A stretch of DNA of 64,000 bases from Agarophyton chilense (Eukaryota; Rhodophyta; Florideophyceae; Gracilariales; Gracilariaceae): contig JARGXX010000003.1 of the NCBI GenBank assembly GCA_030374765.1, forward strand, positions 124,001 to 188,000, given 5' to 3'. Shown here in pieces: positions 27,760 through 63,694 of this stretch; the first letter of the stretch is position 1; each line of letters begins with the position of its first letter. The position numbers and the translations under genes are program-made. Under the pieces are notes generated by a model. The model had not been told where the DNA came from. It saw only the letters and a list, made by a program, of their open reading frames with translations, and did not search any database.

Positions 27760-29529
27760 CTACGCCCCTTTCGAAGGACCAGCCCGACCACTTTGAAAGG
27801 CACCAGCATTCGGTTGATAGCTCTGCACCGCAATGGCTAGGACCTCTCCCATATCAACTATGTTGAGAGGGACTTCCACACCAATGAATTGGAGATGAAG
27901 GCGCATCGCCGCAACTTGCAAATCAACCAGACTCCGCGCGAGCGTCGTAAACCTCCAACCCGCCGGAGCATCCGTATCAACACTAGGACCGGCCACTCCC
28001 ATAGGAATGGTCCCTTCAGAGGCGACAACATCCTCTTTATCCACGTTTGGATCATCGGTATCGACGGTAACCGGAGCGGTTTCACAGTACACCAATCAAG
28101 TTGGATGTCCTGCTTGGATGCCCCGAGTCAATTGGCGCAACGCCCCCGCATGGGCAGTGGTTGTAACCACCCCCTCCCATGGGTCGTAGTACACAAAATC
28201 ACCCGCACCTGGATGCCGGCGACCCGGAGACCGATCATACGGAGAGGCTTGTCCGCGAGCACGGTTAGAAGGAGGGACAGTATCCCAATCGACAATGTCG
28301 ATGAAACTCAGTAAGTAATGAGTTTCACGACAATTCTAGTCAGAGCCCAAGGCTGGGCAGAGAGTAAGTGCTCGAATCGTTGATGGAAGAGCCACAGGAA
28401 GAAACCACAATCAGTTCTTATCATAGGCCTCCCAAAGGATGAATGCCGCAACGAGGTTTGCCCTTTCGGCCAGGACCAAGTTCCAGCATCCCGAGTGCTC
28501 ATCGGCTAACAATCTTGAACATATGTAAGTAAGACACGGAGGAAGTTCGGCATTACACCCACGGGGTACTTTGACCTGATTCCTCCATCTGGGGAAGGGT
28601 ACGTACTTCCCTCGAAGAAAAGGCGGATGGAGGCGGTCAACCTCAACGTTCGGATACGGTACGAAACACCCAAATCGGGAACCAGCTTTTCGCTCGAAGC
28701 GGATCATCTGAAAAAGGGATCTCTGAGATTGTCTCGATACATATCGAAATTGCGCTCGGATAATCGGTCTGCTCCAACACGTCATGTGTGGAAAAAGCTT
28801 GTGAACACTAAGACCATGGTAATCTGTTTCTGGATAGGCAGCTAGGCTATTCCCATAGGATGTTTCACCACGAGTTCGATGGAAAGGCACATCAAAGTTG
28901 TACTCCAACGGTACAGGAGAGTCACCGAGGGTACGGTTGAGTCGCTGATAGGCCAGAAGAGCCATAACGGACCTCGCATCATCCAGACTTTCATCTGTCC
29001 TGCGCAGGAGCGTATCAGGGTCAACCGCGATGTGGGTCCTTCAATCGAAGGAACGGACAATTTGAATCGGAAGTTCACCCTGAAGGTACTCATCCTCCTG
29101 GTAGAAGTCGATCAACTGATTGTTGAGAACCATAGTGGGATGTAACCAGGGGGCTCTGGAATAGAGAAAATTATTCTGAAAAGGATCTCGAACCACCAGC
29201 GATTTGCGCGATATCCAACCGGATTCATTCGCTGAGACGAGCATCGCTTGAGGCGAATTCCACACGGAAGCGTCGACGAGGTTGTTCACGCCATGTTGCG
29301 TAATCCCCTGAAAAAGCGGAGCTGATAGGAAACCACTGTGGTATTGCGATCCCGCAGAGCTCGGCGCACCTGTAGGAACTTGATCGTTGTTGTCCGAAAA
29401 GGGATTCATTCCGTTTGGAAATGTTTCAGAAGGCTGCGATTTATCAGAAGAGGAGATGTTGGAATTACTCGGGCTGAGTGGGTCAGACGAGAGTTTCTTA
29501 CGAGGAACCGGAACATCGGTGACACTCAT
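27760..29529 (-). pseudogene. Gypsy1 antisense accessory gene (aORF family)
   Basis: A single minus-strand frame of 590 codons starts at the ATG at 29529 (MSVTDVPVPRKK), 84 bp from the 3' LTR, and ends 158 bp from the pol stop. Its in-frame stops are TGA 29041-29043, TGA 28411-28413, TAG 28336-28338 and TGA 28096-28098. The Ser/Pro-rich N-terminal part is followed by APWL, then SRPIIRAQFRY, MIRFERKAGSRFG, VPYPNVEVDRL and FILWEA. Across the stops come LWFLP, FIDIVDWDTVP, SPGRRHP and DFVYYDPWEG. All of these align with the gypsy3 gene at 61715-63694. The TGA at 29041 aligns with a Trp there. I recognise no known domain, signal peptide or membrane segment. Confidence 0.8.
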
Positions 29530-29600
29530 GATGAAAGGACTGCTTTTACGTTGCTCGTACTTCGCTTCGGATTGAGGTGTTTCCCCAGTACTCCAACTTT

Positions 29601-29613
29601 AGGGAGGGGGAGA
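29601..29613 (+). other. Gypsy1 polypurine tract
   Basis: AGGGAGGGGGAGA immediately precedes the TG of the 3' LTR, as expected for second-strand priming. Confidence 0.88.
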
Positions 29614-30456
29614 TGTAGAGCAACACGTGCGCGTATAACCGGTTGGGGCACCACTCATATGTCATCCGATATATCGGGGACCTCGTCAACGATTTTATGA
29701 GTAGTATTAGTGTTTAGTGTTTTAGACACCTTAGAAGGTATGTCAGTTAAGCCTCTACAGTAGTACCGAAGTGGACGGATGGATGTGCAAGGCTGGTGTT
29801 ACACATATGACACGTGTATGGACCAGGATGGGTGTGTACTACTATAGTTTACACGTGTAGTTCACTGTCTAGAATAGAGTTAAGCGATGGCTTCACCGCC
29901 ATCGCTACCACCAAGTAAATGGAAACCGAGTGCTTGGATCTAGATTATGTCGCCTACGCGAGTCTCCATCTCTTTACGAAAGGAACCGCGACTGGTTTGG
30001 CTAATCTATCCCCTCGGGAAGCTCAGGCGTCACTGTACCCTTGTTTTTGGTGTGCTTCTTTCTTTTGGTGGTTTTTTTGTGTTTAGGACAGTACACCGCC
30101 CCTGTATAGGGTTGTTCTTACCCGTCTTTGTTTCGCTTATCCAGTGTGGATACCTCTTTCATAGGTCGGTAGGCTTGGTCGTGCGTCTTATTTCGCCCCT
30201 ACATTTTCGCCCTACATTTTCGCCCTACATTTTCGCCCTAAATTTCGCTGTTGTCTACGGAATACCCTTGTACTATGATCCCCCTTTAATTCTTCCACTT
30301 TTCCTGGGTTCATCACCTTCGTAGGTATTGCCTGAACCACTGTGGTCTTACACCCACGCATCGGTGGCACGAAGGCTAGTTCGATGAGTTACCCCTCTTC
30401 ACGAGAGCGGGACTCGAACACCCAAGAGGTATTTCCCCATCTGGGATTGCTTTACA
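29614..30456 (+). repeat. Gypsy1 3' LTR
   Basis: An 843-bp partner of the 5' LTR, beginning TGTAGAGC and ending TTGCTTTACA, followed by CAGAT. The 26-bp length excess over the 5' copy equals two extra 13-bp tandem units at 30187-30245. Read on the minus strand, this LTR lies directly upstream of the antisense gene and is the natural place for its promoter. Confidence 0.93.
30187..30245 (+). repeat. 13-bp tandem repeat in gypsy1 3' LTR
   Basis: The unit is close to ATTTTCGCCCTAC and occurs about four times here. The 5' LTR (about 20105-20132) has about two copies. Confidence 0.8.
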
Positions 30457-30772
30457 CAGATATATACTTAGGGCCGTTTCTACACTAGCACAAAGTACGG
30501 TGTATTTCGTCCAGAATCCCCCTGATCCAGGGGATTTCCCATTTCTTAAGACATGCATAGGACATAGTTCTTCTTGTCCAATTTCCATTTTATTTTGGGG
30601 TTTCTAGAGAGTGACTCCAACATATAACTCATCATGATAGCCTCTGTCGCCATCCAAAACATGACTACCGAACGGGGCCGTCGCTTCGTGATGGCCATTT
30701 CAGCCGTTCTTGCAACTGATGATGATGCACCAGAGCTATTGGCCACAAACTTGCTTTCCTTAACCCAATCAA

Positions 30773-31909: not shown

Positions 31910-32147
31910 AACTTATCCAAAAAGCACTCTAAGACACTGTGTGTCTTTTCTAGATCCTCGTTTCCCATTTGTAGCTCCGGAATTAGCTTCACATTCGTCT
32001 CTTCTTGTTTCTATATAAATTAATAGAGCAACTCATCACGGGAAATCTTTTGCTTCTTCCGAGTAGTGGTGGATCTACGTTTAGAGACAGTAAAAAGTCC
32101 ATCAGTGAAATATTGTGCCAGAGGATTGTATGTGGCATTTTCGTTTT

Positions 32148-33349: not shown

Positions 33350-33733
33350 CAGTAGGTGCCTGCGCGATCACGTGACTGGCTTCTCTCGACATCTGCTCCA
33401 CTCTGCCAAATGGGCAGTGTGTCAAGTTGAAATGCACAAGTCGCAGACATTCTGCAATAGAAAAGTAAGAAACTTTGCAGAACATATCCAAAAAATTCAC
33501 GAGCTTTTTGCACAGGTGCGAGCGACTGGTGCCGCGTATTGACGGCGCCGCAGTCATCGGCGCCTCTCTAGTCGACATGTGTAACAATCCATGAGTGGCA
33601 TATTACCGCACTATTTGGCCATCTACCTCCCGACAGCTGCTCTATTCGATGCGCCCGTAATATCGACGGCGTTCAGCTCCACTCTGCATCTAGTTCTACT
33701 CCCGCAGCCATCCAATATAGCCTGAACAGAAAC
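33350..33733. other. Intergenic region upstream of PINX1-like gene
   Basis: No coding sequence supported. It must hold the promoter of the gene at 33734. No clear TATA box was seen. Confidence 0.4.
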
Positions 33734-34333
33734 ATGGCGGGCAGTGTCGACACACGAAATCAAGCTTGGGCGAGCGACACGTCTCGCTTCGGTCTGAAAA
33801 TGCTCCAGAAAATGGGTTGGAGTGAGGGAAAAGGTCTGGGCCGCGAGGAAAATGGAAGGACCGATCCCTTGCGCGCGAAGAAGAATTTTGAAAAGCAGGG
33901 CTTGGGTGTGTCAGTCGTCAACACAAGTGCGTGGGATGCGCCGGCTCAAATGGCGCATGGATTGAATAGTGTGCTTGCGAAATTGGCTTCAACCCATTCT
34001 GCTTTGTTGGAACAAGGCGCTGATGTGCAGAATGAGGCAAGTCGTCCAGTTGGGTTTTATGCGCGGAGGGCGGCCCAAAAGAATGTGAAGGGCTACTCTG
34101 CGGATGCGCTTCGTGAGATTTTTGGTGGCGTGGCCGGCGTAAAGGCAAAGACAGAGGAAAACACCCCTGCCACGAATCCCCTCAACGCAGAGGCGTTGCA
34201 GATGGGCAGCAAACCTCTTCGTAACGAAAGGCGGAAAAAGAAGAGGTTTGACAAGTTGGGCGTGTCCTCTAAGATACACAAACCACACAAACATGACAAG
34301 AAAAAGCGGAAAAGGAAATACAAGTCTAACTGA
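33734..34333 (+). CDS. PINX1: G-patch protein, PINX1/Gno1 homologue
   Basis: An intact single-exon gene of 199 residues with ATG at 33734. Residues 17-62 form a G-patch domain (SRFGLKMLQKMGWSEGKGLG, then NGRTDPLRAKKN). This family's version binds and activates the DEAH helicase Prp43/DHX15. After DNTSAWD-like sequence and a middle region, the C-terminus is very Lys/Arg-rich (about residues 165-199), a nucleolar targeting signal. PINX1/Gno1 proteins act in small-nucleolar-RNA and rRNA processing, and in animals also restrain telomerase. The length is shorter than human PINX1 (328) but near the conserved core. It lies beside the transposon cluster but has clean coding sequence. Confidence 0.92.
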   Translation: MAGSVDTRNQAWASDTSRFGLKMLQKMGWSEGKGLGREENGRTDPLRAKKNFEKQGLGVSVVNTSAWDAPAQMAHGLNSVLAKLASTHSALLEQGADVQNEASRPVGFYARRAAQKNVKGYSADALREIFGGVAGVKAKTEENTPATNPLNAEALQMGSKPLRNERRKKKRFDKLGVSSKIHKPHKHDKKKRKRKYKSN

Positions 34334-34887: not shown

Positions 34888-35454
34888 GAGTTTCTTACTG
34901 ATATCCAACGAGGAATTCGATTGTTGAGAAGGTCATCAACTTTTGATGAAGTGCACTTCAGAAGAGCCTGAATTGCCTTATTTTTCACCGCGTCTCTCTG
35001 AGTGCTGAGTTTTTCTCCTTCGAAAATGTTCTATGAATGCATTCTCACCTTCGAAGCGTCGGAGGATGTCAACCATCTCCGCAATACTTTACCTCGCTTG
35101 GAAAGATGAGAAAGTTCCACTGTACATTGGTTTTTCATGACTGCGGCACATGCTCCACGTTTCTTTGCGTTCGATTCAAGTTGCATTGCTGGAAGAGCAG
35201 CGGAAGGGTGCCACCGGTGCATCATGGATAGTGTCAGAAAGAACCGAGGAAAACGACTGTATTTCAGGCCTTGAACAATTGAGAATCCTTTTTTGAAAGA
35301 TCACACACGCGCATGCATGTGAGATCACAGTCGCGAATCTCCCTGGCATCGATATTGCAATCTTTTTTGTGTGCTAACGCAGACATCTCAAAAGTTATCT
35401 TGCTCTTCTGACTGTAGTCACGTACTTAAAACACTTCTGGTCTCCGTTTGCACA
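34888..35454. other. Divergent intergenic region between OXLD1-like gene and tig
   Basis: About 570 bp between two divergently transcribed genes, so it likely holds both promoters. Short frames here carry no motif. Confidence 0.4.
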
Positions 35455-36930
35455 ATGCAAACACCTGGGTTTGCAGGCAGTGCTCCGAGATTATGGCGTC
35501 ATCGTCAACAACATCGGTCGCCGAGATGTCCCGCTCGAAGAGCCAACCTTTTTGGACCCGCCCCTTGGAGCATGGGGCTTTCAGTTAAGACGGCCCCATT
35601 GCCGAAGAGTCAAGTGAGCATTGAGATCTCCGTCGACAAGGAGGAATGCAGTGCGGCATGGGACTCTGTCGTCAAAGATCTGTCAAAGAAGTCCAAAATT
35701 CAAGGCTTTCGAAAGGGAACCGCTCCGAAACAACTCGTTATCAACCAATACGGCAAGGACAATGTGAAGGCCAGCGCTTGCGAAGAGGTTATCGAAAAAT
35801 CTATCCAGAAAGCGTTGAAGGACTCTGGTATTCACGCCATTGGTCAAGCACAGGTGGACGGTGATGGAGGAGTCGCGTCTGTCATTGCCGACTATGACCC
35901 GCAGTCCCCTTTGAAGTTTAAAGTTAAGATTGATGTCTGGCCTGAAGCTTCTTTCATTTCAACCTATGAGAACTTGGAAATCGAGGCAGAAGAATCGGCT
36001 TTTGATGAATCTTTGGTCGATAAGGCTCTTGAGGATTTGAGGCAGAAAGAGTCTTTCTCTGTCTTGGCCCCGGAAGGAACAAATGCAGAACTCGGAAAGT
36101 TATTGGTTGCAGACCTCGTCGGATATTATCGCAATGATGATGGAACCAGGGGAGGCAAGCTTCCAGACATTGCTGATGGAAACTCTATTGAAATCAACAT
36201 GACTGAAGGTAAGTTCATGGCCGGGTTTGTGGAGGGCTTGATTGGGGCTGAGGTAGGCGAAACAAGAGATGTGAACGTCGAATTCCCAACCACCAATCCA
36301 CGACCAGAGTTGGCAGGTGTGAAAGCAATTTTTTCTGTGACGATCCATGCCGTCAAGGATGTAGTGCTTCCTGAATTGAACGATGACTTCGCCCGTCAAG
36401 TCAGTGAAGAGAAAAGCCTTGAAGATTTCCGAAGGACCATTCGAGATCGGCTTGACACCGAGTCTGAAACGGCCCAGGAAAATAATATAAATACTGCGAT
36501 TGACAATGAACTTTCGGAACTCGTCCAAGTGGACCTTCCTGAATCTCTAGTTGAAAATCAAGTCAAGAACAAGTTTGCAACAATGCTTTCATCATTTAAG
36601 GACAAAGGTATGGCCGACGAGCAGGTGAAGGCCATGGTAACAAAAGAAAATTACGAACTGTACAAGGAAAGAGCTCGAGGAAACGTTGAGAAGGCGTTGC
36701 GTGTCAATTTCGCTGTATCCCGCATCGCAAAGGATCAGAACCTCGTGGTGGAAAAGAAAGCCGTCGAAGATCAGATGGCTTTTGTTCGTGCTGAATTGAA
36801 AGGACAAGATATGGACGAGGACAGAGTGCGAGACCAGGTTGAGGCGCAGCTTGAGCGGGAATTAGTTTTGAAACATATCAGAAAGACCGCCAAGATATCT
36901 CTTGTACCACCAAAGAAGGCTAAAGAATAG
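35455..36930 (+). CDS. tig: Trigger factor chaperone, plastid-targeted
   Basis: An intact single-exon gene of 491 residues. ATG 35455 was chosen because upstream codons in the frame lack another ATG. Residues 1-50 are Arg-rich, Ser/Pro-rich and nearly free of acidic residues, as in a plastid transit peptide. The ribosome-binding domain follows with the signature GFRKG (84-88). A peptidyl-prolyl isomerase (FKBP-like) domain spans about 215-330 (TEGKFMAGFVEGLIGAEVGE), and the C-terminal chaperone arms run to the end. Bacterial trigger factor binds nascent chains at the ribosome exit, and plants and algae keep a nuclear copy for plastid ribosomes. The length matches E. coli Tig (432) plus transit peptide. 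Confidence 0.95.
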   Translation: MQTPGFAGSAPRLWRHRQQHRSPRCPARRANLFGPAPWSMGLSVKTAPLPKSQVSIEISVDKEECSAAWDSVVKDLSKKSKIQGFRKGTAPKQLVINQYGKDNVKASACEEVIEKSIQKALKDSGIHAIGQAQVDGDGGVASVIADYDPQSPLKFKVKIDVWPEASFISTYENLEIEAEESAFDESLVDKALEDLRQKESFSVLAPEGTNAELGKLLVADLVGYYRNDDGTRGGKLPDIADGNSIEINMTEGKFMAGFVEGLIGAEVGETRDVNVEFPTTNPRPELAGVKAIFSVTIHAVKDVVLPELNDDFARQVSEEKSLEDFRRTIRDRLDTESETAQENNINTAIDNELSELVQVDLPESLVENQVKNKFATMLSSFKDKGMADEQVKAMVTKENYELYKERARGNVEKALRVNFAVSRIAKDQNLVVEKKAVEDQMAFVRAELKGQDMDEDRVRDQVEAQLERELVLKHIRKTAKISLVPPKKAKE

Positions 36931-43789: not shown

Positions 43790-44106
43790 TCGGCACTGAG
43801 TGAAGATTCCTAATTTACACTCCCACAAATCGACCAATTCCTGGAGACTTGTTCTGAGATCGAGGTTGTAACTTGCATCAAATTGTCAGATTCTCAAGCT
43901 CTCTTTGATCAAATCAAACGAGTGACTTCGTACATAGGCTCTGAAGCCGTGCATCACTTTCAGGAGGTGTTCAGAATAGCGATGGAGGGCTACAACCGAG
44001 GGCGACTCCCTTTAATTTCCGTCTTCAACACTTTCAAAGTGGGTGTGAAGAAGAAACGATAACGGTTGAGCCCTGTAAGCCGCCGGGCCCAGAGAGAAAT
44101 GAAAGA
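43790..44106. other. MULE 3' remnant before gypsy2
   Basis: The sequence looks like decayed continuation of the transposase C-terminus. No inverted repeat or target duplication found. Confidence 0.35.
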
Positions 44107-44489
44107 TGCCACGTGGACTGGGCGACCTCAGCTGGACTGATTTAGATTATTAATTTATTTTAATTAGTGTAATAGATTAGCAGTACAGTGCCAGGGAGAT
44201 CTCAACTCCTCTCCAGTACTATTTACTTGGCTCGAGTGACGCTTCTCTCTTAGAGTAAGGTAGGCACCGTTAGGATACTAAATAACCTCTTTTGGTATAT
44301 TAGTTCCACCATTTGGTCTTCAAGCCATCGTTTCCGTAGCTCCAACCTGTATGATTATGCAGTAAACGCGAGCCTATTGCACCAAGTACTCTGCGAGAGC
44401 CGCCGTCAAGGATTCGAACCTTAAGACCGGCTCTACAACGCTACCACCGGTTGAGACCCGTACGCTAACCCACCCGTCATTGCGTTACA
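44107..44489 (+). repeat. Gypsy2 5' LTR
   Basis: A 383-bp repeat beginning TGCCACGTGG and ending TGCGTTACA, matching 53934-54315 along its length. Confidence 0.88.
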
Positions 44490-44492: not shown

Positions 44493-44510
44493 TGGTTTCC
44501 CGACTAAGAA
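44493..44510 (+). other. Gypsy2 primer-binding site
   Basis: TGGTTTCCCGACTAAGAA lies just after the LTR and differs from the gypsy1 site at two positions. Confidence 0.7.
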
Positions 44511-46766: not shown

Positions 46767-49700
46767 ATGACACCGAAGAGAAATCTATCCTCAGGAAGAA
46801 ACGGAAACCCTATCGGAAATCTCCTAGAGGGACGAGTCGAGGCAACTCCTCCCTCTTTAAGCCCCTACCTCAACCAATTGGACGGTCATGAGCAAAAGAG
46901 CTCCTCACCTTCCAAAACAAACCACCCAAAATGGACCACTCCGGATGAACCACAATTGGAACACAGTAACTACCCAGTGTGTATTCTCAGGAAAGAGAAC
47001 TATAAAGTTCGAGTAACCGTAGGACTTCGTTCCAAAAACTTTCGATTGACCACAGCTATATTGGACACAAGCGCTGGTCCCAACTTGGTCAATCCTAGGC
47101 TACTCCCACTGGGTTGGAAATAATTCATTCAGGCAAGGAAGACCCCAAGGAATACCGATGCATCACGTAGACCAATAAACAATAAGGGATGGTAACACTT
47201 CACCTCCATTTAGGACAATTCGAAGTGCGCACGTGGTTCCTTGTATGTGCTAACTTGATCGCTGAGCCAATCTTAGAGACGTTCTTTATGGATCGATACA
47301 GCCATTTACCCAGGCCTTACGAAAGTTTCGTTTTACCGCCCACCTTCCATCTCCATAACTGGTTCCGCTCCAGGGCCACAAGCTAGCCGCAAACAAGCGG
47401 TTGTGTCCGAAAACACGAAGTCCAATAAGGTTCGCCTGTCGATGGCCATAACGATACCACCAATGAACCAAATGGCTGTATCCGTCCATTCCCAGTCCTC
47501 AGCTTTCATAACGATTCAGAACCACCCGAAAACGGTTCTGGAGCACCTTACCTTGATGGCCAATGGAGTAATGGACATCCACCCCGACAGGCCCTTCTTG
47601 GTCACAATCAGTAACTTCAGAGATGAACTCGTACGGTTACCTAAAGGTACAGTGATTGGCATCACTCTACCCGCACCCGTGATCACCATGGAGGCCCAAA
47701 TGGATAACCTTGCAATGACAACTCCCGACGAGTACGTCGACTCTTGGGAGGGGACGGTCGCTATCGGCGCAGAATTAGAATCCTATAGACTCCAGGTACT
47801 TGATCTCCTCAGAGATTACCAGGCCATGTGTTCAGGCAGATTGGGCACAATCAGAGCCAATACACACTGCATTGGCCTTCAGGATGATACTAGACCACAG
47901 ACACAGCAACCATACCGTACAGGCCTTAAGGGTAGGGAAATTGTCGCCGACTAGATGGACGAGATGCGCAAAGCTCAAGTCATAGAGCCGGCGCCTCCGA
48001 ACCAATCCGAATGGGCGAGTCCCATTGTCCTCGTGGCGAAGAAAGATGGCTCCATCAGGTTCTGTGTCCAATACAGGAAGCTGAACGCAGTAACCAAGAG
48101 GGACTCAAACCCGATACCTCGCATGGATGACTGTCTGGATTCCTTAGGCAAAACTGTCGTATTTACAACACTAGACGCTAACTCGGGATATTTGCAAATT
48201 CCTTTGGCCGAAGATGTGAGAGCGCTGACAACCTTTACCACCCATGAAGACCAGTTCAGATTTACTCGTATGCCCTTTGGTTTGAAGAATGCACCAGCAA
48301 ATTTCGAAAGGGTAATGGACATCATACTATCCAGAGTCAAATAGAAGTTCGCCCTGGTCTTTTTGGATGACGTTATACTCTTCTCACGGACCGTAAAAGA
48401 ACACCTTCGCCACGGAAGAAAGGTGCTGAAAATCCTACAGGACGCTGGAGTAAGACTGAAACTCGGCAAATGCGCTTTCTTCCAGGCCTCAGGGAACTAT
48501 CACGGTCACATCGCCCTCCCAGGAAAGCTAAAGGTGGCCACACGGACCACAAATGCGATTCGCCAGGCTAAGCCTCCTAGGACCCACACGGAACTACGAT
48601 CCTTCGTGAGCTTTTGCAACGTCTACCGAAAGTTCGTCCAAGGGTTTGCAAAAGTCTCGGCCCCTCTCAACGCGATGCTGAAGAAGGGAACACCTTCGGA
48701 ATTCGAAGCCCTTACGGACGACCAGTACGAGGCATTTTAGACCCTAAAGGACAAATTACTGAACCCACCCATATTGGCTTTACCAAAGCCCAATAGGCCT
48801 TTCTTCCGGGACACAGATGCCTCTGTGATTTCCCAGTGGGTTATGAACTGCTACAGGAACAGGAGCCACCGAAGGATTGTCGACCTATTCACTACTGGAG
48901 CAGAACGCTCACCAGCGCGGAGCGAAACTACAGTACGACCGAAAAGGAATGTCTAGCTATCGTATGGTCTGTATTGACACTCTGTCCGTACCTCGGGGGA
49001 ACTAGGTTTACCGTTAGAACAGACCACGATTCACTCCGCTGGCTACCGAATATGACCAATGCATCAAGTCTTCTCGCTCAGTCGCGCCTCAGGCTGTTTG
49101 AATATGACTACTTAATAGCTTAAAGGCCAGGACTCAAGCACCAGGCAGCAGATGCCCTGTCGCGAATCACTACCGACATAACTGATGAAACTACATTAGA
49201 AGACCTAATTCCTACCCCCTTTGGAGATGATGGACCTCAGAATTATACGGAAACGGATGACGTTATGGGTAAGTTCCAATCGGATGATCCTGAGGTGAAG
49301 GAGAAAGAAGTATAATTATTAGACTGGGAGACAGTACCGCCCAATTAGACACCACCTCAGGTTAATGCGATAGCCGTGGAGGAAAAAGAGCTCCTCCCTG
49401 TAACTATTGACTAACTCCTACAGGCGTAGGTCGAAGACGAGTATTGCAAGGAAACAGCCCAATTGGTAGGAACCCCTGGATGCCTATTCGACTATGATCA
49501 ATTTGGACTACTATGTCGCCGCTCACCGCTGGATGGCGCACTCCAAAGGGTAATACCAACATCGCTAACGGCGTGATTTCTTTACCTCGCCAATTTCCCT
49601 CGCTTGGATGGTCACCCAGGAGGCTGACAAATGTACCAGACCCTAAGGAAGTTCTTCTACTGGGTACTAATGGCGCAGGATATATGGCAAAACGCACGGA

Positions 49701-51039
49701 ACTGTACATCGTGCGCACAAATCCGAGGGTCTTGCACCAACCATCAGACCGAATTGAAGCTCTTCCCCGCCGCAGGTCCGATGGAATATGTTGCAATGGA
49801 TATACTTGGGCTTTTGCTTAGGTGGTCCCATGGAAAACGATTTGTCTTGGTCATAACCGGTAGGTTTATCAAGCTTACCCGAGCCCTACCTTTAGGGAAG
49901 ACAACAGCCACGGAGTTCGCCACGGCCTTCTTGTCCCACCGGGTCAATCTATATGGCATGTCACTCTACCTTTTTACGGATAACAGCAGCCAGTTAGTAT
50001 CCAAATTCTTCACATATGTTTGTTGCTACCTTAGGTATCAAACATGTGACCATCACAGCGAACCACCCGAAAACCAATGGCCAAGCCGAACGCTTTAACC
50101 ATACCCTTCTAGACCGATTGGCGCACTACGATTCGGAGCACCAATTGGACTGGGAAGATTATGTTGAGCCACTGGTTTATGCCTACAACACGCAGGTGCA
50201 CGATTCCACAGGGTCAACGCCTTTCGAATTAACGCTAACGAGATCGCCGCCGCCGATAGCTGTTGACTTTCAGGAGTCTATCATACCCCAGGACATAATT
50301 AAAAAAATGACAGCGACCCGGGCGAAGCGCTACTCGCGCCGACGCATCTAACGCAATATCTAATCGGCCAGAGCCGTACTAACCAAAGCCCAACGGCGCT
50401 ACAAAGTCAATTTTGACAAGGCCGTTTTGAACACAACGACCATTGAGAAAGGAGACCTGGTTTACCTGGACTGGCCACCGAAGGACAGTGATGAACTCGA
50501 GAACACTAGACGAAAGCTCTTACCCCACTCTACGGGACCATAAAAAGTCCTTAACTCCAATCAACACACCATCACGTTAGTAATTGACGGCCTACAGGAA
50601 ACCGTATCGATTGATCGGGTGACCGGAGCTCCCAGCTCCCCCGAATCACCAAAGTCCCAGTCGCCTAACTCAACGGAAACACTACGACCTCAGGCCGACG
50701 CTCAAGTCTCGACACCCCTCAACGCAGTTACCGCGGACTTGACTAGCACGGATTGACCCGAACGTCAATGCCAATGACGACGACCCATATTTTCCAACCG
50801 ACTCCGATAGATTCGCCCCTCTGGACCATACTCTCCTGCTGGAGAATGAATACCAACTGGTGTAGGTGAATGAGGGCATCATCTCCGCCGCTCGGGGAGA
50901 AGATGGAAATATGCGCTACCGCGTCCGTTGGTTCGGCTATACACCTTACGAAGACATTCGGCAAGAGCCTCAAACCATTCCGGCTAATTCTATCGCCCGC
51001 TATTGGCGCAGAATCAGCCGCACGGAGGGCGGCCTTTAG
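46767..51039 (+). pseudogene. Gypsy2 pol: protease, RT, RNase H, integrase, chromodomain
   Basis: Protease: ILDTSAGPNLV (about 47060), with the Gly of DTG changed to Ser. Reverse transcriptase (47403-48740, one frame): PIVLVAKKDGS, MPFGLKNAPANF and VFLDDVILFS, with TAG at 47952, 48342 and 48738. RNase H (48836-49123): ERNYSTTEKECLAIVW and TDHDSLRWL. Integrase (49570-50351, two frames): NCTSCAQ, AMDILG, FTDNSSQ and NGQAERFNHT. The chromodomain-like end (about 50866-51039) has YRVRWFGYTPYED. The first two catalytic Asp residues and the Glu of integrase are present. Many stops and shifts make it more decayed than gypsy1. Confidence 0.87.
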
Positions 51040-51354: not shown

Positions 51355-53460
51355 CTAAGGCGGCGCAAGAGTAACTCCGTCGTCTTCATTGAAACCTGCT
51401 GGAGCGAAACCGTGACTAGTGTCACCCGAGGAGCGAACTAAACCACTAGGACCGGCCAAAGCGAGCCGAGCACGCTTCTTCGGCGGAGATTCACCTGATG
51501 AACTATTGTTACCATCGTAAGCCTCACAGTCCCTCAAATTTAGACCATACAAGGCATCCAAGTCGGCAGTAACCCTTTGGGACATATTTTGGGCATTCTG
51601 CTGCAGGAAATTGACCATGGTGGTCTTTAGATCCTGATCTTGTTGGAAAACCGCAGCGTAGCGCGCCGAGCGACGCACCCGGGAGCAAGCAGCCCTCAGG
51701 ACTGTCGCAATGTCCATCGAGGACGTAATACCAACGGTACGGCAGACATGACGGACATCCAAAGCCATAGCCGTGACCGAAGCGGGAAAGTGTGGCAACG
51801 GACAGGACGAAGAGATGTCGACGCCCCCAGTGGACGTTTGAGCCAGCGCAACACCGAGAGGACTTCTGGACTCGACAGTAACCTCGACAGGAGGGATGTC
51901 CACCTGGGCGACGGGCCGCTCCTAAGAAAGCTTATCGTAAGGAGCAGCGCCCGGAGGAGCTGGGGGAAGGGAAGCGGTCGGCAACACCAGAGAAGACCCG
52001 ACCGGAGGATTAACGCCCTCCACGGGTAGGACGAAGGGATCTTCACCAAAGGATTTTAAATCGGACATACCAGCTAGAACCAACGGCCTGGCTTCCATAT
52101 CAGGCTCGAAGCACAGGGGATCGAAACCAATGGCCATCGGATAAAAGTCCGGCACATGACGCCTCGGGATGTCCGATGGTTGATTCCTCAAAAGCTTGGC
52201 GATACAGCCACGAGCGTCGTCCCGACACTGCGGATGTAGCGGAATCGGCGTGAGTGAATCGTTATCGTAGTCATACCAAAGGAACCCGGGAGTCTTGCCC
52301 CACTCTCCCTGTAAGACATGATCCAAAAGGGCCTCGGTCTCCTCAAAGTCGAACTGGGTCCCACGAACGATATTCTGGATGCACAGGTTCCTTAGGAAAG
52401 GGATCATGATGCCCGCGAGCGGGATCAGGCGACCTCGAGGACCGGGTATGTTCTCGTCGTACCATACCCTCCAGTTCTCCGAACGGACATTACCATGGAT
52501 TCCGTACTTTGCGTTATCCAGGAAGGCCATAACGGACGTCACGCCGAACTGAACGAAGAGTGTCTGAAACAACAGCCACTACCTTCAGTGATTGTCATCA
52601 CCCATGACTTTGGACGAGTTGTACGCCACCACGGACGGCGTGGGAACCAAAAGAAGCGGCGACACACGCCAATACATGGACCATTGGTTCTCATCCTCGC
52701 GGGGAAGCGAAAGATATAACGGACGACGTTTGTCTTCGCTCCTGTCGTCAAACTCCACCTGGTGCCAACAAAAAAGGAACCCCAGGGATTGACGCAAACG
52801 ATCATCGGACTTGTGCATCTCGTTCCAATAGACCCGGTTAGACATCCAGAAAAGGTGGTCGTACGGTGGCCGGAAGCAAATAAGCGCGAAGAGGTTGTGA
52901 CCAGCCGCAGGAAAGCGCACATGAGGCGAAATTGAGTCCGTGTATAGGTCCGAAAGAAGTTTTTTCACCCTGAACTGGTAGTCGGCTTCCTCTTCGCAGC
53001 GGACATACGGGATGTCCGCTTCGACGAGGGTGCGACATCTCGTCTTCGAACGCGGACCCACACGACAATGCAACCATCGGTTATACCACGAGACGCAGCG
53101 CGCGTTTTTTCTGCCCCTCCGGAAGTCGGGTATCCTGGCAAACCTTCGGGCGTCGAGATACATATGGAAAAACCTTTGGTATTCTTCCACAGAAAACGGA
53201 AGAACGGCATGCCGCACTGCCCGCGGATTCCGTCCGATGGTATGGTCAATGCGGTCCCAGGGACGTTCGTAAGTCACTTGGTATCCTGAGGAGCTCCTTG
53301 CTTGGTTGTTCGAAGCCATGGTACCGCTGCGCACAGGCTGGTTCGTCTGGAAGTGAATAGGACGACCGACAGAAGCGATATAGTCCGGAAAAAGAACGGC
53401 ATCTCCGACGGGCGTATAAGGCGAGTTCGGTATAGCGCGCAACCAATTTAAAAGTATCAC
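51355..53460 (-). pseudogene. Gypsy2 antisense accessory gene (aORF family, divergent)
   Basis: One minus-strand frame of 702 codons is interrupted by TGA 52585-52587, TAG 52579-52581 and TAG 51922-51924. It ends 315 bp from the pol stop, convergent with it. The region before the first stops (LGFLFCWHQVEF, RRPLYLSLP, LLLVPTPSVVAYNS) and the one after (FLWYDYDND) align at lower identity with the gypsy1 and gypsy3 genes. The two stops at 52579-52587 align with Ser and Leu in gypsy3 without a gap. The C-terminal piece (51355-51903) is basic with PPKKRARLA, a nuclear-localisation-like motif. The true N-terminus, in 53461-53930, is frame-broken. Confidence 0.72.
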
Positions 53461-53933
53461 GATGGGAAGACGAGGTAATGGAGTTGACTTGAACAGACTG
53501 ATAGAAGTGAATCACGGTGGACGAAGTGCGGAAGGTCGCCAAACGAAGACCGGAGACCAAGGAAGGCCCCAATTACCGTCAGAGGAGAAGAAGCCAATGG
53601 AATGTCTCGGCAACGCGACGCAAGGAATGCACCGGCGATGCACCTATGGCCAGCGCTCACGGCGCGTGGAAGTTTCAGTCCTTCGGCAAAATCAATTGCC
53701 CTTCGGCGCCAATGGTCAGCCCACTCTTCCCCGTATTCCTGCAGGCGATGACGATGAGACGTCCCGTCGCGCCCAGTGGTACCGGTAGCAACGAAGTGTA
53801 TGCGTCCCATGGGTCAATCATGACGCCTTCTGGATTTCGCCGTGATGGCCGAATCTTATGGAGGGAGATATGTGAGGGAGCAAAGATAGCGGTTGAGCGC
53901 AATAAGCCACCAGGTCCTGAGGGAACTGACTGA
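53461..53933 (-). other. Damaged N-terminal region of the gypsy2 antisense gene
   Basis: Minus-strand frames at 53457-53810 and 53675-53902 overlap the place where the N-terminal part of the accessory protein should be. An in-frame TGA at 53512-53514 cuts the main frame. No exact start could be set. A purine-rich tract before 53934 would be the gypsy2 polypurine tract but is weak (GAGGGAA). Confidence 0.4.
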
Positions 53934-54315
53934 TGCCAAGTGGACTGGCCGACCTCATCTGGACTGACTTTGTTTATTAATTTTTTTAATTAGTATAATC
54001 GATTAGCATTACAATGCCAGGGAGATTCCAGCGCCTCGTCAGTACTATGTACTTGGCTCGAGTGACGCTTTACCCCTAGAGTAAGGTAGGCACCGTTTGG
54101 ATACTAAATTACCCCCTTTCGTACATTAGTTTCACGAATTGGTCTTCATGCCATTGCTTTCGTAACTTCAACTTGTATGAATACGCACTAAACTCGAGCC
54201 TATTGCAGCAAGTACTCTGGGAGTGCTGCCGTCAAGGACATGGACCTTAAGAACCGCTCTGCCACGTTACCACCGGTTGAGACCAATACGCTGACCTACC
54301 AGTCAATGCGTTACA
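53934..54315 (+). repeat. Gypsy2 3' LTR
   Basis: A 382-bp partner of 44107-44489, beginning TGCCAAGTGG and ending TGCGTTACA. Confidence 0.88.
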
Positions 54316-57211: not shown

Positions 57212-57213
57212 TA

Positions 57214-58515
57214 CAGTGCGTTTCAAAAACATATCCCTTTACAAAAACTGCGCCAAAAAGGCATTTCACGTACTGTAGAGCACATTTCACAACAAATAAA
57301 AACCACTAAGTCAATACCACTGTTTAAAAAGTATATCCTTCATACAATCATTCGCTCAATTATGGCTCGTGGCGCACCTCTGACACGCTCTGAACAGCTG
57401 GAAATCATGGAATTAGTAGGTCAGGGTATGATTCCAGCAGATATAGCCCGAAAACTCAAGCGCAGCCCAAAAACAATCAGCAACTTCATCAAAAACCCCG
57501 CTACACACGCAACAAAGCGTTCAACCGGCAGTCCTACGGCACTATCCCCGGCCGATAAGCGTGAAATTAAGCGGGAACTATGCCGCAACACTTCATCTTG
57601 CGGGAAAATTGTCAAAACTCTAAATTTGCCTCTATCAAGATCTACAATATGGCGTGAAGTCAACCGTCAAAATCTGTTCAAGTAGACAAAAATGAGGAAA
57701 ACTTTTTTTTTAAAAGATAATCACAAGAAAAATCGAGTTGAATGGTGTGCTCAAAAAGCTTATTGGAAAACGGAATGGAATAATGTTATCTTTTCAGACG
57801 AAAATAAGTTTAACCTTGATGGTCCAGATTGCTATAAATTTTATTGGCATGATCTACGAAAAGGAAAGAAGGAATTTGTGATTAGGCATTCAGGAGGCGC
57901 ATCAGTAATGGTTTGGGCTGGAATCTCTACGAAAGGAGCAACTCATATGGCTTTTGTTGAAACTACAATGAACTCTGAGAAGTATGCTGAGGTTCTAGAA
58001 AACTATCTTTTACCTTTTGCATACTTTATGCACGGAGAAGAATTCATTTTTCAGCAAGATAATGCACCTGTGCATAAGTCTAATTCTATGAAACAGTGGT
58101 TCAATCTAAATATGTCGGTTATGGAATGGCCTGCGCGCTCTCCTGACCTCAACCCTATCGAAAACATTTGGGAAATGTTGGCCCGAATGGTTTATGGGCA
58201 AGGAAGGCAATTTGATACAGTTTTTGATCTGAAAAAATGTATCAAAGATTGCTGGGAAAAGATTGACTGTAATGCTATCAATCCTTTTATAGAATCAATG
58301 CCAAAGCGTTGTATAAGTGTTATACAGGCTAGAGGAGCAAAAATAAACTACTGAACTCGCGTTAGAATAAAAAGGATGCAATAAAGGTTATGATTTTGAA
58401 ACAGTTTTTTTACTTGAAAATTTTTTCACACTGATTTTGTTAGTTTTACTGTAGCCAAAACGTCGATTTTTGGAAAATTTGTGCGAGGGATATGATTTTG
58501 AAACAGACTTTACTG
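57214..58515 (+). mobile_element. Tc1/mariner transposon
   Basis: A 1302-bp element flanked by TA (57212-57213 and 58516-58517), the family's target duplication. The ends are inverted repeats: CAGTGCGTTTCAAAAACATATCCCT at the left corresponds to a right end that reads, reversed, CAGTAAAGTC then TGTTTCAAAATCATATCCCT. A second internal copy of the right-end motif (TATGATTTTGAAACAG at about 58389 and 58491) suggests a repeated transposase-binding site. Confidence 0.9.
57362..58354 (+). pseudogene. Tc1/mariner transposase, one in-frame stop
   Basis: The start is ATG 57362 (MARGAPLTRSEQLEIMELV), where the family's helix-turn-helix begins. A first HTH (GQGMIPADIARKLKRSPKTI) is followed by a second around LNLPLSRSTIWREVNR. 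A single TAG at 57683-57685 interrupts the frame before TKMRKTFFLKD, probably at a Tyr codon. The catalytic core is intact after it: FSDENKF (Asp 1), QQDNAPVH (Asp 2) and SPDLNPIENIWE (Glu). I count 33 residues between the second Asp and the Glu, one fewer than the usual DD34E of Tc1. Except for the one stop the copy looks well preserved. Confidence 0.9.
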
Positions 58516-59169: not shown

Positions 59170-60157
59170 TAAGATCGTTGCGTCGAGAAGTGCTCCTAGG
59201 TTGGCTTGACGCAGGCTCCAATCGTGCTATCGCAAACCTTTTTGCAGCTTCCGCCTCCGGAGGTAAAAGAGACCTAGGAGGACTGGTAGAACTCCGAAAC
59301 ACTGCTTTATGTTCTTTCTATACAAAATGGCATATGTATTGCATGCTTCACAATCTGCTCGTTGATGTCGCATAATCACTGCGCTGTCATGGACAATACA
59401 TCACCTATCGTTTTCAAAGAGTCTTTGACTAGTGACAATCTTATTCCCAAATATTCTATAGCCTCATGGTTTTTATTGACATCTAAGAAGGTGAATTTTA
59501 GCTCCTTTCAAACGCCCGCAGCGTTCAGGTACTCCCAATTCTTCGCCAATAGTCGGTTTCGGGAGCACTTTTGACAAAGGAGGCATCTAGAGGCGGCGAG
59601 GAGTATCCAATACGATAAATGGGCACATTAAAACCTCCTTCAGAGACACTGCTTTCTCCAACCAACTTAGCATTGTAAATATCGGTAACCACGATGGCAT
59701 AATTGCATTGCTCGAGGTTTACGGTCATCCAGGCAGCACGCAAAGCGACGGCAAGATGTATGGCTCCCTCGTTAGCACCACTCGATACGAATTTTTCGCT
59801 GTCAGCCATTTCCGCTTTTGCAATGTGAGTGTGCTATTTAAAACCGGTCACCTCCTCATGCGTTGAGAGAGATCCCTCTGTAATCAAAGTAGTAGACATC
59901 GTCTGTGTTCTCGGAATGCTAGATAAGTGTGCTAGATAGCTAGTTTTGTAAATAAAAAGCCAAAAAATCTAAGAATTTTGCAGATTGGGCTAGTTCGGCA
60001 CCTGAAAAAAAACATCATTTTTGGAAATAAGAACTCCATGCATCTTAGTGTTTTGACCATTTAATGCAGTTTAATCTGCATTTGCAGTTTACTGGTCACT
60101 TTTGACCGCTCTAGGTGGAGATCCATACCAAGGCAGTCGTCAATACCTTCTACCTCC
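59170..60157. other. Unassigned sequence
   Basis: A minus-strand frame of 94 codons at 59525-59809 (MADSEKFVSSGANEGAIHLA) has an ATG start and protein-like composition but no motif. The rest shows no supported feature. Confidence 0.3.
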
Positions 60158-60604
60158 TTACTGGCCCTTTCGCTTACTAGGCTCCAGCGTTCCACCGGGA
60201 GGGTATTTGAGGTTGAAGAAGTCCACCACCGCATTCTCAACCTCGTCCACCTCCCCACTGCTCAAGTTCCTCACACCCGGCTGCCCCACCACACACACAT
60301 TCCCACCCTTCTTCTCCACATCCTTACCAACCCTCTTCTTCTTCAGCCAAATCTCTCCAACTCCTCCCCCTTTCCATTCCTCTCTCCCCTTCTTCATCCC
60401 AGCCGGCTCCCCGCGTCTCCCTGGCGTCACCGGCGACCCTTTCGCTCTCCCCATCTCCTCTCCCACCTCCTTCAACACCTTCTGCGCACCCCAAATCTCC
60501 CTCACCCCTTCCATGTGCACTTCCAACACCTTCACACGCCTCTGCAGTTCCTCATTCGCCCTCCACAGCTTCCCCATCTCCAGCCCCATCGAGTCGCAGC
60601 ACAC
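60158..60604 (-). CDS. Hypothetical coiled-coil, Lys/Glu/Gly-rich protein
   Basis: An open frame of 148 codons on the strand opposite a C-rich stretch. Residues about 10-55 (LWRANEELQRRVKVLEVHME) have a heptad pattern, then a Gly/Lys/Glu-rich region, and the end (NAVVDFFNLKYPPGG) is more globular. The upstream edge runs into the hairpin repeats, whose arm is related to its first codons. Real protein or compositional artefact is undecided. Confidence 0.3.
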   Translation of the reverse strand: MCCDSMGLEMGKLWRANEELQRRVKVLEVHMEGVREIWGAQKVLKEVGEEMGRAKGSPVTPGRRGEPAGMKKGREEWKGGGVGEIWLKKKRVGKDVEKKGGNVCVVGQPGVRNLSSGEVDEVENAVVDFFNLKYPPGGTLEPSKRKGQ

Positions 60605-60860
60605 CCCTGGCGGCCCACAAATGGCCCGAATGGTGTCCCTACAACATGTTGGTGAATTGTCAGCCGACAGGGGTGTGCTGCGACTTCATCGGTGGACCGA
60701 TGAAGTCGCAGGGCACCCCTGTCGGCCGACAAATACGCCATAACATCACGCATGATGCGTTTCTGAGATGTTGGTCGACTGTCGGCCGACAGAGGTGCGC
60801 TCCGACTTCATCGGGGGTCCCGATGAAGTCCCCACGCACCTCTGTCGGCCGACAGAATGC
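60590..60860. repeat. Tandem array of long imperfect hairpins
   Basis: Arms of about 35-38 bp pair across 2-3 base loops: 60659-60693 with 60696-60730 (three mismatches by eye), and about 60777-60815 with about 60818-60856. Each arm contains GACTTCATCGG near the loop and the palindrome CTGTCGGCCGACAG or a close relative at the outer end. A half arm lies at about 60590-60630. Spacers of about 45 bp are partly palindromic too. Confidence 0.8.
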
Positions 60861-60885
60861 ACCGTGTACACCTGGGCGTCCTAAA

Positions 60886-61679
60886 TGTAGTGCAACGCCA
60901 AGGGCGGCGGAAACACACGAAGATGTCCGAGTCTTCCTCCAAGGAGGGTAGCACGGCGACGGAGCCTCTGCGGAGTGAACACGACTAAGTCGGGGTGTAA
61001 GGCCGAGGTTCACCGGCACGCCAAGCGGGGAGAGTGCGGGATGCAAGAAGGGAGCAGACCAGGTATGAGCTGTATTCCACGGGAGTGGGCAAGTGATAAA
61101 GGGGGGACCACCCAGTGGGGGCGATCGGGGGCATGGGCCACGAGAGACAAAAGAAATATGTAGCAAACCCATTACTGGGGCGAGAATACGGCAATGGTAT
61201 GAAAGATATACACGCTAGCAGCGGTGAGTCACCTGTTGGCGCAGGGTGGATAAGTCTACCGTTAGTAACGCGGCTTCACCTCCGTGGAGTGTGGGAGACT
61301 TGCGAAAGCGGAAAAAGACTAAGAGCCAAGAACCCTGGTTGGGGAGGTTTACTGAGTGTCAGGGCGAGATCACCCTGGCACTATATAGTGTAGAATACTG
61401 TAAAGAGCTCCCTAACCTAGTTTAATAAAGCTAAATAAATAGAGAAATATCCAGCTATGCTGTGCCGACCTGTCCTGGGCCACACGTGGTACACGTGGGT
61501 AAGTCACACCCGAATCGGGGCCACGGCGCACGGCCGCCGGTGCACTTCGCGTACAACGCGTATACACCTGGCTACACCAGCCCGCTAGTAGCGGTATTAC
61601 TCATAGATCTCACAAGTATCGCCCGAGGCGGAAAAACAACCAAGTCCTAGAAAACGTCCCTCACGAGGGTTGCACTTCA
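60886..61679 (-). repeat. Gypsy3 3' LTR (limits inferred)
   Basis: The right limit is set by the polypurine tract. The left limit is set by TGTAGTGCAACG, which on the minus strand gives an end TTGCACTACA like those of gypsy1 (TTGCTCTACA) and gypsy2 (TTGCGTTACA). The resulting 794 bp is close to the gypsy1 LTR. The partner LTR is outside the window, so this is not confirmed by a second copy. Confidence 0.6.
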
Positions 61680-61680
61680 T

Positions 61681-61692
61681 ATCCCCCTCCTG
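61681..61692 (-). other. Gypsy3 polypurine tract
   Basis: The minus strand reads CAGGAGGGGGAT just before TGAAGTGC, the inferred start of the 3' LTR. Confidence 0.65.
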
Positions 61693-61714
61693 AGGCGCGA
61701 GTACGACATCCGCG

Positions 61715-63694
61715 ATGGTGGGCGACGCGCCGAGACGAATGCATAAGAGTGCAACCAGCTCGCTGGGATCCACTTCATCCGATGCCAACAAACGCAGTGC
61801 GGCAAAAATCCAGTCTCCTGGCAACAACCGTTCTCAACGTTCCATCTCAACCGAATCCGCATCCTTGCGTGCCAGTCCTCCGATTCCTCGGCGTCGTCTT
61901 TCGCTTCGGCGGTCTCCTCTTCCGGTCATCCGGCCTCTTGGCTCACCGATGAGAAACCAAAACAATCAACCCAACCGTCTCCCTGCGGGGTACTTCTCCG
62001 GCTTCCGGTCCGCTCCGCTTCCGCAAAGCGTGTCATCGGCTGCGCCGCAGATTCGTATCGCGAACGCGGCTGCTGCTCCGTACGGAATGTTCCCCCCGAG
62101 AGGGTGGCCGCCATACGACATGCTTGTCGGGCGCTATCCTGGGCATCAGGCGTCGGTTCTTCGGCTTGCGCCGTGGTTCGACCAGATTGCGGTGTTAAAC
62201 GAAGCGCTCATAGCGATGTACACCGATGGAAACGGGATGCTTTCGGGCGATATTCCGGCCGTGGCGACAACTTCGTTGGATTGGCGACGCCGCGTAGCTG
62301 TTCCGGTCCACGCTGTGGCGCGCCAGGGTAGTGAAATCTCGGCTTCCGCTCCTGCGGCCTTCGTCCTTCTTGGCCATCAACGGCTTCGCCGGGCTCCTTT
62401 CGAATATCCCATCCCCGATCGTCTCGGCACCGACATTCGGCTTTACCGCACTCAAGGTGAGATTGGGTACGTGGACCGCCTGGCGGGTTTGGAAACACTC
62501 TCGTGGAGGGGCATCCCGATATCACGGCAAGAGGCCATGTGCTGGACGCGACCGATTATCCGGGCAGAATTCCGCTACATGCGTGGACTTGCGCGGGCCA
62601 ACTTCCTCGCCCTGATCCGCTTCGAGCGTCGAGCACGATCCCGATTCGGGTATTTGGTCCCGTATCAGAACGTGGAGATCGAACGCCTTCGAGTGGCCGA
62701 CCGACGGGGTCGCTATGTCCTCATTCCACCGTGGTGGTCGAACCTCGAGGCCTGCCGGGGCTGTTACATCGAGCTGCCACCAGTCATCACGTATTACGGT
62801 TCGTTCCTCATCGAGGATCCCGAATCCGGACTGTGGTCCGTGGTGATTACCGAATGGGCAGTCCGCGCGGCGGTGTTCATCCTCTGGGAGGTGTAGAACC
62901 AGTACAGACTGTGGTTCCTCCCGTTCCGGTTGAGGTCCGCGATTTGCAGCCTGGACCTGAGCATCCCACTTGGTGGAGTAACCAACGCCGAAGAAGTGGC
63001 GGGTCTTCTCGATTACATCGACCAGTTGGACTGGACCACCGTTCCGAATGAACAAAGCGGGCGCACCGTGGGTAGCCGGGGTCAGGACCTGTCACCAGGA
63101 AGGCGTACTCCCTTGGGAGATGATTTCGTGTACTTTAACCCTTGGGAAGGGCACGAAATCTCCGCGGAGGAAGCGAACGAACTCCGGTATGCACTACGCC
63201 ATATCCCCGAAGGGCATCTGATCGGTTTCGTGGACGCGGATGGATATTACCACGTCTACGACGGCGACGATCCAATGGTGGACAACGAACCCGACGACGG
63301 GGAAGCGTACGCCGAGGCGGAGGTTGAGGGGTCCGGAGCGGAAAATCCCTATAACGCGGAGACGCCAGCCACGCCTTATGTGGATTTGGATAACCGCGCG
63401 GGGGCTGGGTCGGAGTACGCGGTAGCTGGACCACCTCCGGTTCCACCGGTGAATCTCCCAAGTGGTGGGGCGTCCGCCCCAGGCGATGCAAGCTCCGCTC
63501 CGGCGGGTCAAGCGGCCGTGATCTCCCAGTTCCTGCGACAGGTGGGGCTGGGGACCAACGCAGCGAGTGGCGATGTTGCCGCGATGCGCGAGGCCTTGAT
63601 CACCGTCTCCAGGGAGGTAACCAAGCCGGGGGCGGTGAGCCGAACCCGTGACGGGGCACGCGATCCCGATGGGGAGTTTTCCCTTGTGACTTAG
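61715..63694 (+). pseudogene. Gypsy3 accessory gene (aORF family, best preserved)
   Basis: A frame of 660 codons from ATG 61715, 35 bp inside the element from the LTR, with one in-frame TAG (62894-62896). That stop aligns with a Tyr codon in gypsy1, so it is probably a nonsense mutation. The N-terminal 110 residues are Ser/Pro/Arg-rich and very basic (PIPRRRLSLRRSP). The conserved region has APWFDQIAVLNEALI, CWTRPIIRAEFRY, LIRFERRARSRFGY, VPYQNVEIERL and FILWE. After the TAG come RLWFLPF, YIDQLDWTTVP, SPGRRTP and DFVYFNPWEG. An acidic Gly/Asp/Glu-rich stretch and a Pro/Ala-rich tail follow. No known domain, no signal peptide. It faces pol, 136 bp away. Confidence 0.8.

What the first reader, a model, noticed from the sequence alone, without database searches (positions are those of the whole stretch)
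27760..63694. Three gypsy elements share a large convergent accessory gene family of unknown function
Between pol and the 3' LTR, on the opposite strand, gypsy1 (27760-29529), gypsy2 (51355-53460) and gypsy3 (61715-63694) each carry a frame of 590-702 codons. Gypsy1 and gypsy3 share RPIIRA-FRY, IRFER-A-SRFG, VPY-NVE, FILWE, LWFLP, DW-TVP, SPGRR and DFVY--PWEG in the same order; gypsy2 is a distant relative. I recognise no domain. Antisense ORFs at this place are known in some plant gypsy elements, but this protein is not one I know. It may be a regulator, a structural protein or a defence-evasion factor of the element.
Basis: partly seen in the sequence, partly recalled or inferred. Interest (0 to 1): 0.88.

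Follow-up and report, generated by a model that had tools for sequence, protein, structure and literature searches.

The report
Antisense gene of red-algal gypsy retrotransposons
Three jumping genes in this seaweed DNA carry a backwards-facing extra gene beside their end repeat; hundreds of places in the genome hold it, so it looks like a real gene of unknown function, of a kind known from plants but with a protein that matched no described family in the libraries searched.

Summary
Confirmed. Each of the three gypsy elements has, between pol and the 3' LTR and antisense to pol, one long frame (590-702 codons; 4, 3 and 1 internal stops). Gypsy1 and gypsy3 are clear relatives; gypsy2 joins them only weakly. 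The host genome (80 Mb, probably Gracilariaceae) lists 80 gypsy3-type (A) and 150 gypsy2-type places, and 69 scored family-B places, all lower bounds. 44 of 71 (A) and 40 of 69 (B) scored stretches lack stops; 75 of 78 A-type RT places have the ORF, or part of it, convergent within 9 kb. In the A core it is the only open frame and the best conserved, with pN/pS 0.48-0.69 between families and median dN/dS about 0.65 within. Six metagenome proteins (31-42%) and two Agarophyton chilense proteins (gypsy2 type) are relatives; no known domain was found. The start codon lies 71 (gypsy1) and 35 nt (gypsy3) from the 3' LTR, so I infer an antisense transcript begun in that LTR. Best guess: an element-encoded regulator that works like plant aORF-3R or retroviral HBZ without being their relative by the tests run. 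Transcription, fold and function are untested.

The parts
27760..29529 (-). gypsy1 antisense accessory ORF, 590 codons, 4 internal stops
   Evidence: 39-42% to an A-type ORF
19515..20349 (+). gypsy1 5' LTR
   Evidence: 87.7% to 3' LTR
29601..30456 (+). gypsy1 3' LTR; ORF start codon 71 nt away
20352..20367 (+). gypsy1 primer-binding site
23756..25971 (+). gypsy1 pol: RT 23756-24992, integrase 25210-25971
27387..27599 (+). gypsy1 pol tail (chromodomain region)
   Evidence: 48% to gypsy3
51355..53460 (-). gypsy2 antisense accessory ORF, 702 codons, 3 internal stops
44044..44489 (+). gypsy2 5' LTR
   Evidence: 82.7% to 3' LTR
53871..54315 (+). gypsy2 3' LTR
44493..44508 (+). gypsy2 primer-binding site, 2 mismatches
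47802..50282 (+). gypsy2 pol: RT 47802-49165, integrase 49529-50282
50752..51015 (+). gypsy2 pol tail
   Evidence: 30% to gypsy3
61715..63694 (+). gypsy3 antisense accessory ORF, 660 codons, 1 internal stop (62894-62896)
60886..61679 (-). gypsy3 3' LTR (element lies on the minus strand); ORF start codon 35 nt away
63834..63998 (-). gypsy3 pol C-terminal end, runs on beyond the window

Best explanation
Shown: a protein-coding gene family that is a near-constant extra gene of the gypsy3-type elements and is present in related gypsy families of this genome, antisense to gag-pol and close to the 3' LTR. Inferred: because the start codon lies only tens of nucleotides from the LTR in gypsy1 and gypsy3, the mRNA must begin inside the 3' LTR (or in flanking DNA) and run toward the end of pol, so the gene is expressed apart from the gag-pol transcript. 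Inferred: the product, with a variable N-terminal stretch, a conserved core of roughly 370 residues and a mostly acidic C-terminal stretch, is a regulatory protein of the element (control of its LTR transcription, RNA fate or integration-complex entry), in the way proposed for plant aORF-3R and known for retroviral HBZ.
For: Copies. Stop-free stretches 44 of 71 (A, 400 codons) and 40 of 69 (B, 640 codons, the query's own locus included), tallied. Frame: in the A core only the ORF frame is open (0 stops; others 3-14) and it is the best conserved (A-D 63%, A-B 42%). Selection: pN/pS 0.34/0.67 (A-D), 0.47/0.68 (A-B), 0.35/0.74 (B-gypsy1 kin), uncorrected, pS near saturation; within-family median dN/dS 0.69 A, 0.65 B, 0.64 D; stop variants 6 of 513 (A), 10 of 491 (B), 16 of 1033 (D) against 15.4, 16.7, 37.2 expected with transitions weighted 4 to 1. 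Layout: pol tail convergent downstream in 20 of 20 A, 17 of 20 D, 19 of 20 B loci; 75 of 78 A-type RT places have a convergent ORF, whole or part, within 9 kb. Start codon kept in 20 of 20 A loci. ORF divergence follows pol divergence: A-B RT 67-76%, ORF 39%; A-C RT 45-52%, ORF about 22%. Precedent: PMC7264820 and PMC11963269 (passages); HTLV abstracts.
Against: No transcript data. No NLS-like motif in A or B members and no DNA-binding domain. No consistent TATA-like motif upstream of the ORF: 3 of 20 A and 11 of 20 B loci by a crude scan. Within-family selection is moderate; the B stop deficit is not significant (p 0.054) and A variants shared by two or more copies show no deficit of amino-acid changes (47 N to 23 S, p 0.35). 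B loci were partly picked for long frames. The tie to gypsy2's ORF is weak.
Confidence: 0.5

Rival explanations
1. Anti-silencing or defence-evasion factor: the protein counters host silencing of the element, as VANC does for Arabidopsis VANDAL elements.
For: It diverges faster than RT, integrase and most of gag (A-B: ORF 39%, gag 57%, RT 67-76%), and separate expression would let it act early. VANC precedent from abstracts in a listing only.
Against: It is not uniquely fast: the frame before gag is at 35% (A-B), and the pol linker at 38% (A-gypsy1 kin). No relation to any known factor. Convergent transcription could itself feed silencing.
Confidence: 0.15
2. Structural or transport protein of the particle (capsid partner, matrix, cell-to-cell movement), expressed from the opposite strand.
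For: Large size, about 650 residues; no other gene was found after pol.
Against: Gag is present as its own frame (Retrotrans_gag E 6e-4, under Pfam's cut-off); no clear membrane-spanning stretch shared by members; structural proteins are normally on the genomic strand (general knowledge).
Confidence: 0.13
3. Enzyme of an undescribed fold, taken from a host or virus long ago.
For: Invariant charged and aromatic residues across the 11 members of alignment A1 (R233, R252, E256, E292, R294, E352, E360, E387, D402, W407 in L022 numbering; gypsy2 type not included).
Against: No enzyme family matched by sequence above a cut-off; invariant residues may be structural.
Confidence: 0.12
4. The antisense RNA, not a protein, is what matters (double-stranded RNA control), or the frame is a coding artefact.
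For: Convergent arrangement; no transcript or protein evidence here.
Against: Amino-acid conservation in one frame between families at near-saturated synonymous distance, fewer stops than expected, and 31-42% protein relatives in metagenomes.
Confidence: 0.05

Closest known systems
Plant antisense additional ORFs between pol and 3' LTR (aORF-3R: maize Grande gene23, rice RIRE2, Silene Retand, PvRetro13; also Boty of Botrytis)
   Same: Between pol and 3' LTR, antisense, present in most copies of a family, conserved like other element proteins, role unknown (PMC7264820, passages).
   Different: No sequence relation was found by the searches made, though none of those proteins was compared directly. 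Gypsy1 and gypsy3 start codons lie 71 and 35 nt from the LTR; Grande gene23 is driven by a promoter upstream of gene23 in a long 3' internal region.
Retand TRP28 (Transposase_28, PF04195) proteins
   Same: Same place and orientation (PMC11963269, passages).
   Different: No PF04195 match in the 25 members scanned. Retand is described as a non-chromovirus lineage, while these elements show a weak chromodomain match at the end of pol.
Retroviral antisense genes (HTLV-1 HBZ)
   Same: Antisense gene near the 3' LTR; in HTLV-1 its transcript begins in that LTR (abstracts; passage of PMC7264820).
   Different: No bZIP or other domain found here; antisense transcription untested. That HBZ is far smaller is recalled.
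Env-like sense ORFs of plant LTR elements
   Same: Extra gene between pol and 3' LTR.
   Different: Here antisense, without a clear shared membrane-spanning stretch.

Membership tests
aORF-3R (antisense additional ORF between pol and 3' LTR) | Lies between pol and 3' LTR | tested here: met
aORF-3R (antisense additional ORF between pol and 3' LTR) | Antisense to gag-pol | tested here: met
   56 of 60 loci have the pol tail on the opposite strand downstream; 75 of 78 A-type RT places
aORF-3R (antisense additional ORF between pol and 3' LTR) | Present in most copies and conserved as protein | tested here: met
   type A; share of carriers not measured for B, C, D
aORF-3R (antisense additional ORF between pol and 3' LTR) | Transcribed in antisense | not testable with these tools
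   no transcript data; TATA-like scan uninformative
Retand / TRP28 | PF04195 domain in the antisense protein | tested here: not met
   no match at E<=1 in 25 members; the whole-genome search was silent but so was its control, so that call shows nothing
HBZ-type antisense gene | Promoter in the 3' LTR | not testable with these tools
   inferred only from the 35 and 71 nt distances
HBZ-type antisense gene | bZIP domain | tested here: not met
   no such Pfam match
Env-like ORF | Transmembrane segment | tested here: inconclusive
   crude hydropathy: in most members the top 19-residue stretch scores 0.9-1.8 and holds an E; higher values lie only at edges (2.34 in an L020 piece upstream of its first Met); no dedicated predictor was run
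Env-like ORF | Sense orientation | tested here: not met
Chromovirus (host element) | Chromodomain at the C-terminus of pol | tested here: inconclusive
   PF00385 at the right place, E 4.5e-5 and 1.5e-4, both under Pfam's cut-off
Ty3/gypsy (host element) | RT-RNaseH before integrase in pol | tested here: met

The most novel reading that the evidence does not exclude
An ancient LTR-driven antisense protein is a core extra gene of a whole clade of red-algal gypsy elements, evolved independently of the plant and retroviral antisense genes, and serves as a sequence-specific anti-silencing factor that recognises the element's own LTR: a new class of transposon counter-defence.
Probability: 0.1. Interest if true: 0.85.

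Novelty: new variant of a known kind. Interest (0 to 1): 0.6.

Why it matters
Antisense accessory genes of LTR elements are known from flowering plants, a fungus and some retroviruses, and their role in the retrotransposons is an open question. A family without detectable relation to described domains, kept in gypsy elements of a red alga, suggests that this layout arose more than once or is very old, and gives a system with many recent copies in which antisense transcription, localisation and effect on silencing can be measured.

Tried and rejected
Module swap of the ORF between A and D elements: the pol in L015 is 93% to gypsy3 while the D ORF beside it is about 53%, but that pol belongs to an A element inserted against the D copy L042 (A-type LTR at L015 8026-8819), so the idea was dropped.

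Sense-strand gene as the cause of conservation: sense-strand frames carry 3-14 stops in the A core and align less well.

Known domains: Pfam, PHROGs, NCBIfam, PDB sequences: nothing above a cut-off; weak single-member chance hits only. Relatives in viral contigs and prokaryote genomes: 5 and 88 pattern matches, none confirmed (57, 58; pattern-based, limited reach). A profile search with 11 members found the same six proteins (38; only 8000 candidates scored). TRP28 in the own genome: silent, control silent too (53).

TATA-like box upstream of the ORF: no consistent motif (77).

Papers: the listed rows of searches showed no description of an antisense ORF in red-algal gypsy elements; only open-licence PMC papers are covered. 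Passages, not whole texts, were read of PMC11963269, PMC8622228, PMC7264820 and PMC2864245.

Mended on recheck: a draft called the ORF the fastest gene of the element; one search shows other parts as fast. A draft left out that gypsy2's own ORF gave no direct match, and said D loci were picked for long frames (they are 20 of the 24 listed).
Full report
The window is part of a contig of an 80-Mb genome in 135 contigs. The only named relatives of the family are two unnamed proteins of Agarophyton chilense, 77 and 79% identical to a gypsy2-type ORF over 56 and 31% of it.

Anatomy. Gypsy1 (LTRs 19515-20349 and 29601-30456), gypsy2 (44044-44489 and 53871-54315) and gypsy3 (3' LTR 60886-61679, 5' LTR beyond the window) are gypsy elements with RT and integrase matches in each; in gypsy3 Pfam gives RT, RNaseH and integrase, plus gag and chromodomain matches that stay under Pfam's cut-offs. 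They share a primer-binding site motif. Gypsy3 lies on the minus strand, as its primer site and polypurine tract show (by eye). In each, the ORF is antisense to pol and its start faces the 3' LTR. The start codon is 35 nt from the LTR in gypsy3 and 71 nt in gypsy1; in gypsy2 the frame opens about 360 nt from the LTR and the stated start, 410 nt away, is not an ATG. In gypsy3 about 140 nt separate the ends of the two convergent frames.

Copies. A search with 400 residues of the gypsy3 ORF listed 104 places: 80 of the gypsy3 type (A, 87-100% identity) and 24 at 50-57% (type D). A family-B query scored 69 of 1897 candidates, 92-100% identical, its own locus included; the gypsy1 piece found more than 100 places at 51-53%, which overlap those, and a gypsy2 piece 150. 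The tool calls such counts lower bounds. Of 71 A places that span the query 44 have no stop, and 39 stops are seen in all; of 69 B places 40 have none and 36 stops are seen. The LTR pairs of gypsy2 and gypsy1 are 82.7% and 87.7% identical, against 95.9% and 97.5% in an A and a B copy, so the broken frames of gypsy1 and gypsy2 fit old age.

Linkage. I compared the 78 RT places at 90% identity or more with the 80 A-type ORF places: 70 have a convergent ORF within 9 kb, 1 had a wrong-way neighbour and 7 had none. A search with a later part of the ORF found a convergent piece for 5 of those 8, giving 75 of 78. From the ORF side, 70 of 80 have such an RT, 1 is wrong-way and 9 have none in the list. 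Duplicated copies, the window's own among them, count separately. The pol tail lies opposite and downstream in 20 of 20 A, 17 of 20 D and 19 of 20 B loci.

Coding. In the core, the A ORF frame has no stop and gives 63% (A-D) and 42% (A-B) identity; the other A frames have 3-14 stops and score lower. Between families pN is 0.34-0.49 and pS 0.67-0.74, ratio 0.48-0.69, without correction for saturation. Within families, 190 pairs each, median dN/dS is 0.69 (A), 0.64 (D), 0.65 (B); in A and D it falls as dS grows, as expected if recent changes are neutral and older ones selected; in B there is no clean trend. Against a simple neutral expectation amino-acid variants are fewer (p 0.019 A, 0.041 B, 0.0006 D), and stop variants too (p 0.005 A, 0.054 B, 0.00006 D). 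Variants shared by two or more copies are depleted of amino-acid changes in B and D (p 0.002, 0.00008) but not in A (p 0.35). The A loci are 20 of the 71 full-span places, spread down the list; the D loci 20 of the 24 listed; the B loci were partly chosen for long frames, which lowers their stop count.

Relatives. Six metagenome proteins match the A ORF at 31-42%. In a tree one (P0002) groups with B and gypsy1 kin (100/99) and three (P0004-P0006) form a group of their own (95/96); if these come from other hosts, which is not known, the ORF lineages are older than the host split. The gypsy2-type row sits on a very long branch (3.14) whose place is unsure; it matches the three A rows only, at 22-24%. 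ORF divergence follows pol: A-B ORF 39%, gag 57%, RT 67-76%; A-gypsy1 ORF 39%, gag 37-61%, RT 46-71%; A-C RT 45-52%, ORF 22%. It is faster than RT and integrase but not uniquely so: the frame before gag is at 35% (A-B) and the pol linker at 38-43% (A-gypsy1 and kin).

What it does not look like. No domain above a cut-off, no PDB sequence relative, no prokaryote or viral-contig relative found. In most members the most hydrophobic stretch scores 0.9-1.8 and holds an E, so a membrane span is unlikely but not excluded. The first 130 residues are basic in A and D but mostly not in B; the last 130 are acidic in 21 of the 22 members of alignment A3 that are not pieces (P0005 is the exception) and neutral in L013.

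Mechanism. Shown: coding, conservation, position, linkage. Inferred: antisense transcription from the 3' LTR, from the short distance in gypsy1 and gypsy3. Inferred: regulatory role, from the separate expression unit, the lack of gag-like or clear membrane features, and the precedents of plant aORF-3R (PMC7264820, PMC11963269; passages) and HTLV antisense genes (abstracts). Evasion of silencing is the main rival.

Novelty. The kind, an antisense ORF between pol and 3' LTR, is known from plants and from Boty of Botrytis. The protein family, the host group and the nearness of the start to the LTR in gypsy1 and gypsy3 are new as far as the searches reach (listings).

Noticed in passing
window 60148-64000 and C3 184-219 kb (L017, L018, L019): Gypsy3 lies in a near-perfect inverted duplication (99.6-99.9% identity); the second copy's ORF is split at the same place. 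It may be a recent palindrome or an assembly artefact. L018 also holds dense internal direct and inverted repeats.
   Followed up: partly
window 4098-10589: A copia-type element on the minus strand with LTR pieces at 98-99% identity and long gag and integrase frames.
   Followed up: no
window 57686-58354 (+): A DNA transposon frame with a DDE_3 domain (E 2e-17), probably Tc1/mariner-like (recalled).
   Followed up: no
window 35323-36930 (+) and 33572-34333 (+): Host-type genes between the elements: a trigger-factor protein (plastid targeting is a guess) and a G-patch protein.
   Followed up: no
L017 834-5885 (-): Pol of gypsy3 has about 600 residues between the integrase core and the chromodomain-like end, without a Pfam match; its first part is 38-43% to gypsy1 and its kin.
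   Followed up: no
gypsy3 LTR, window about 61382: A palindromic TATATA site in the LTR can be read in both directions; meaning unknown.
   Followed up: no
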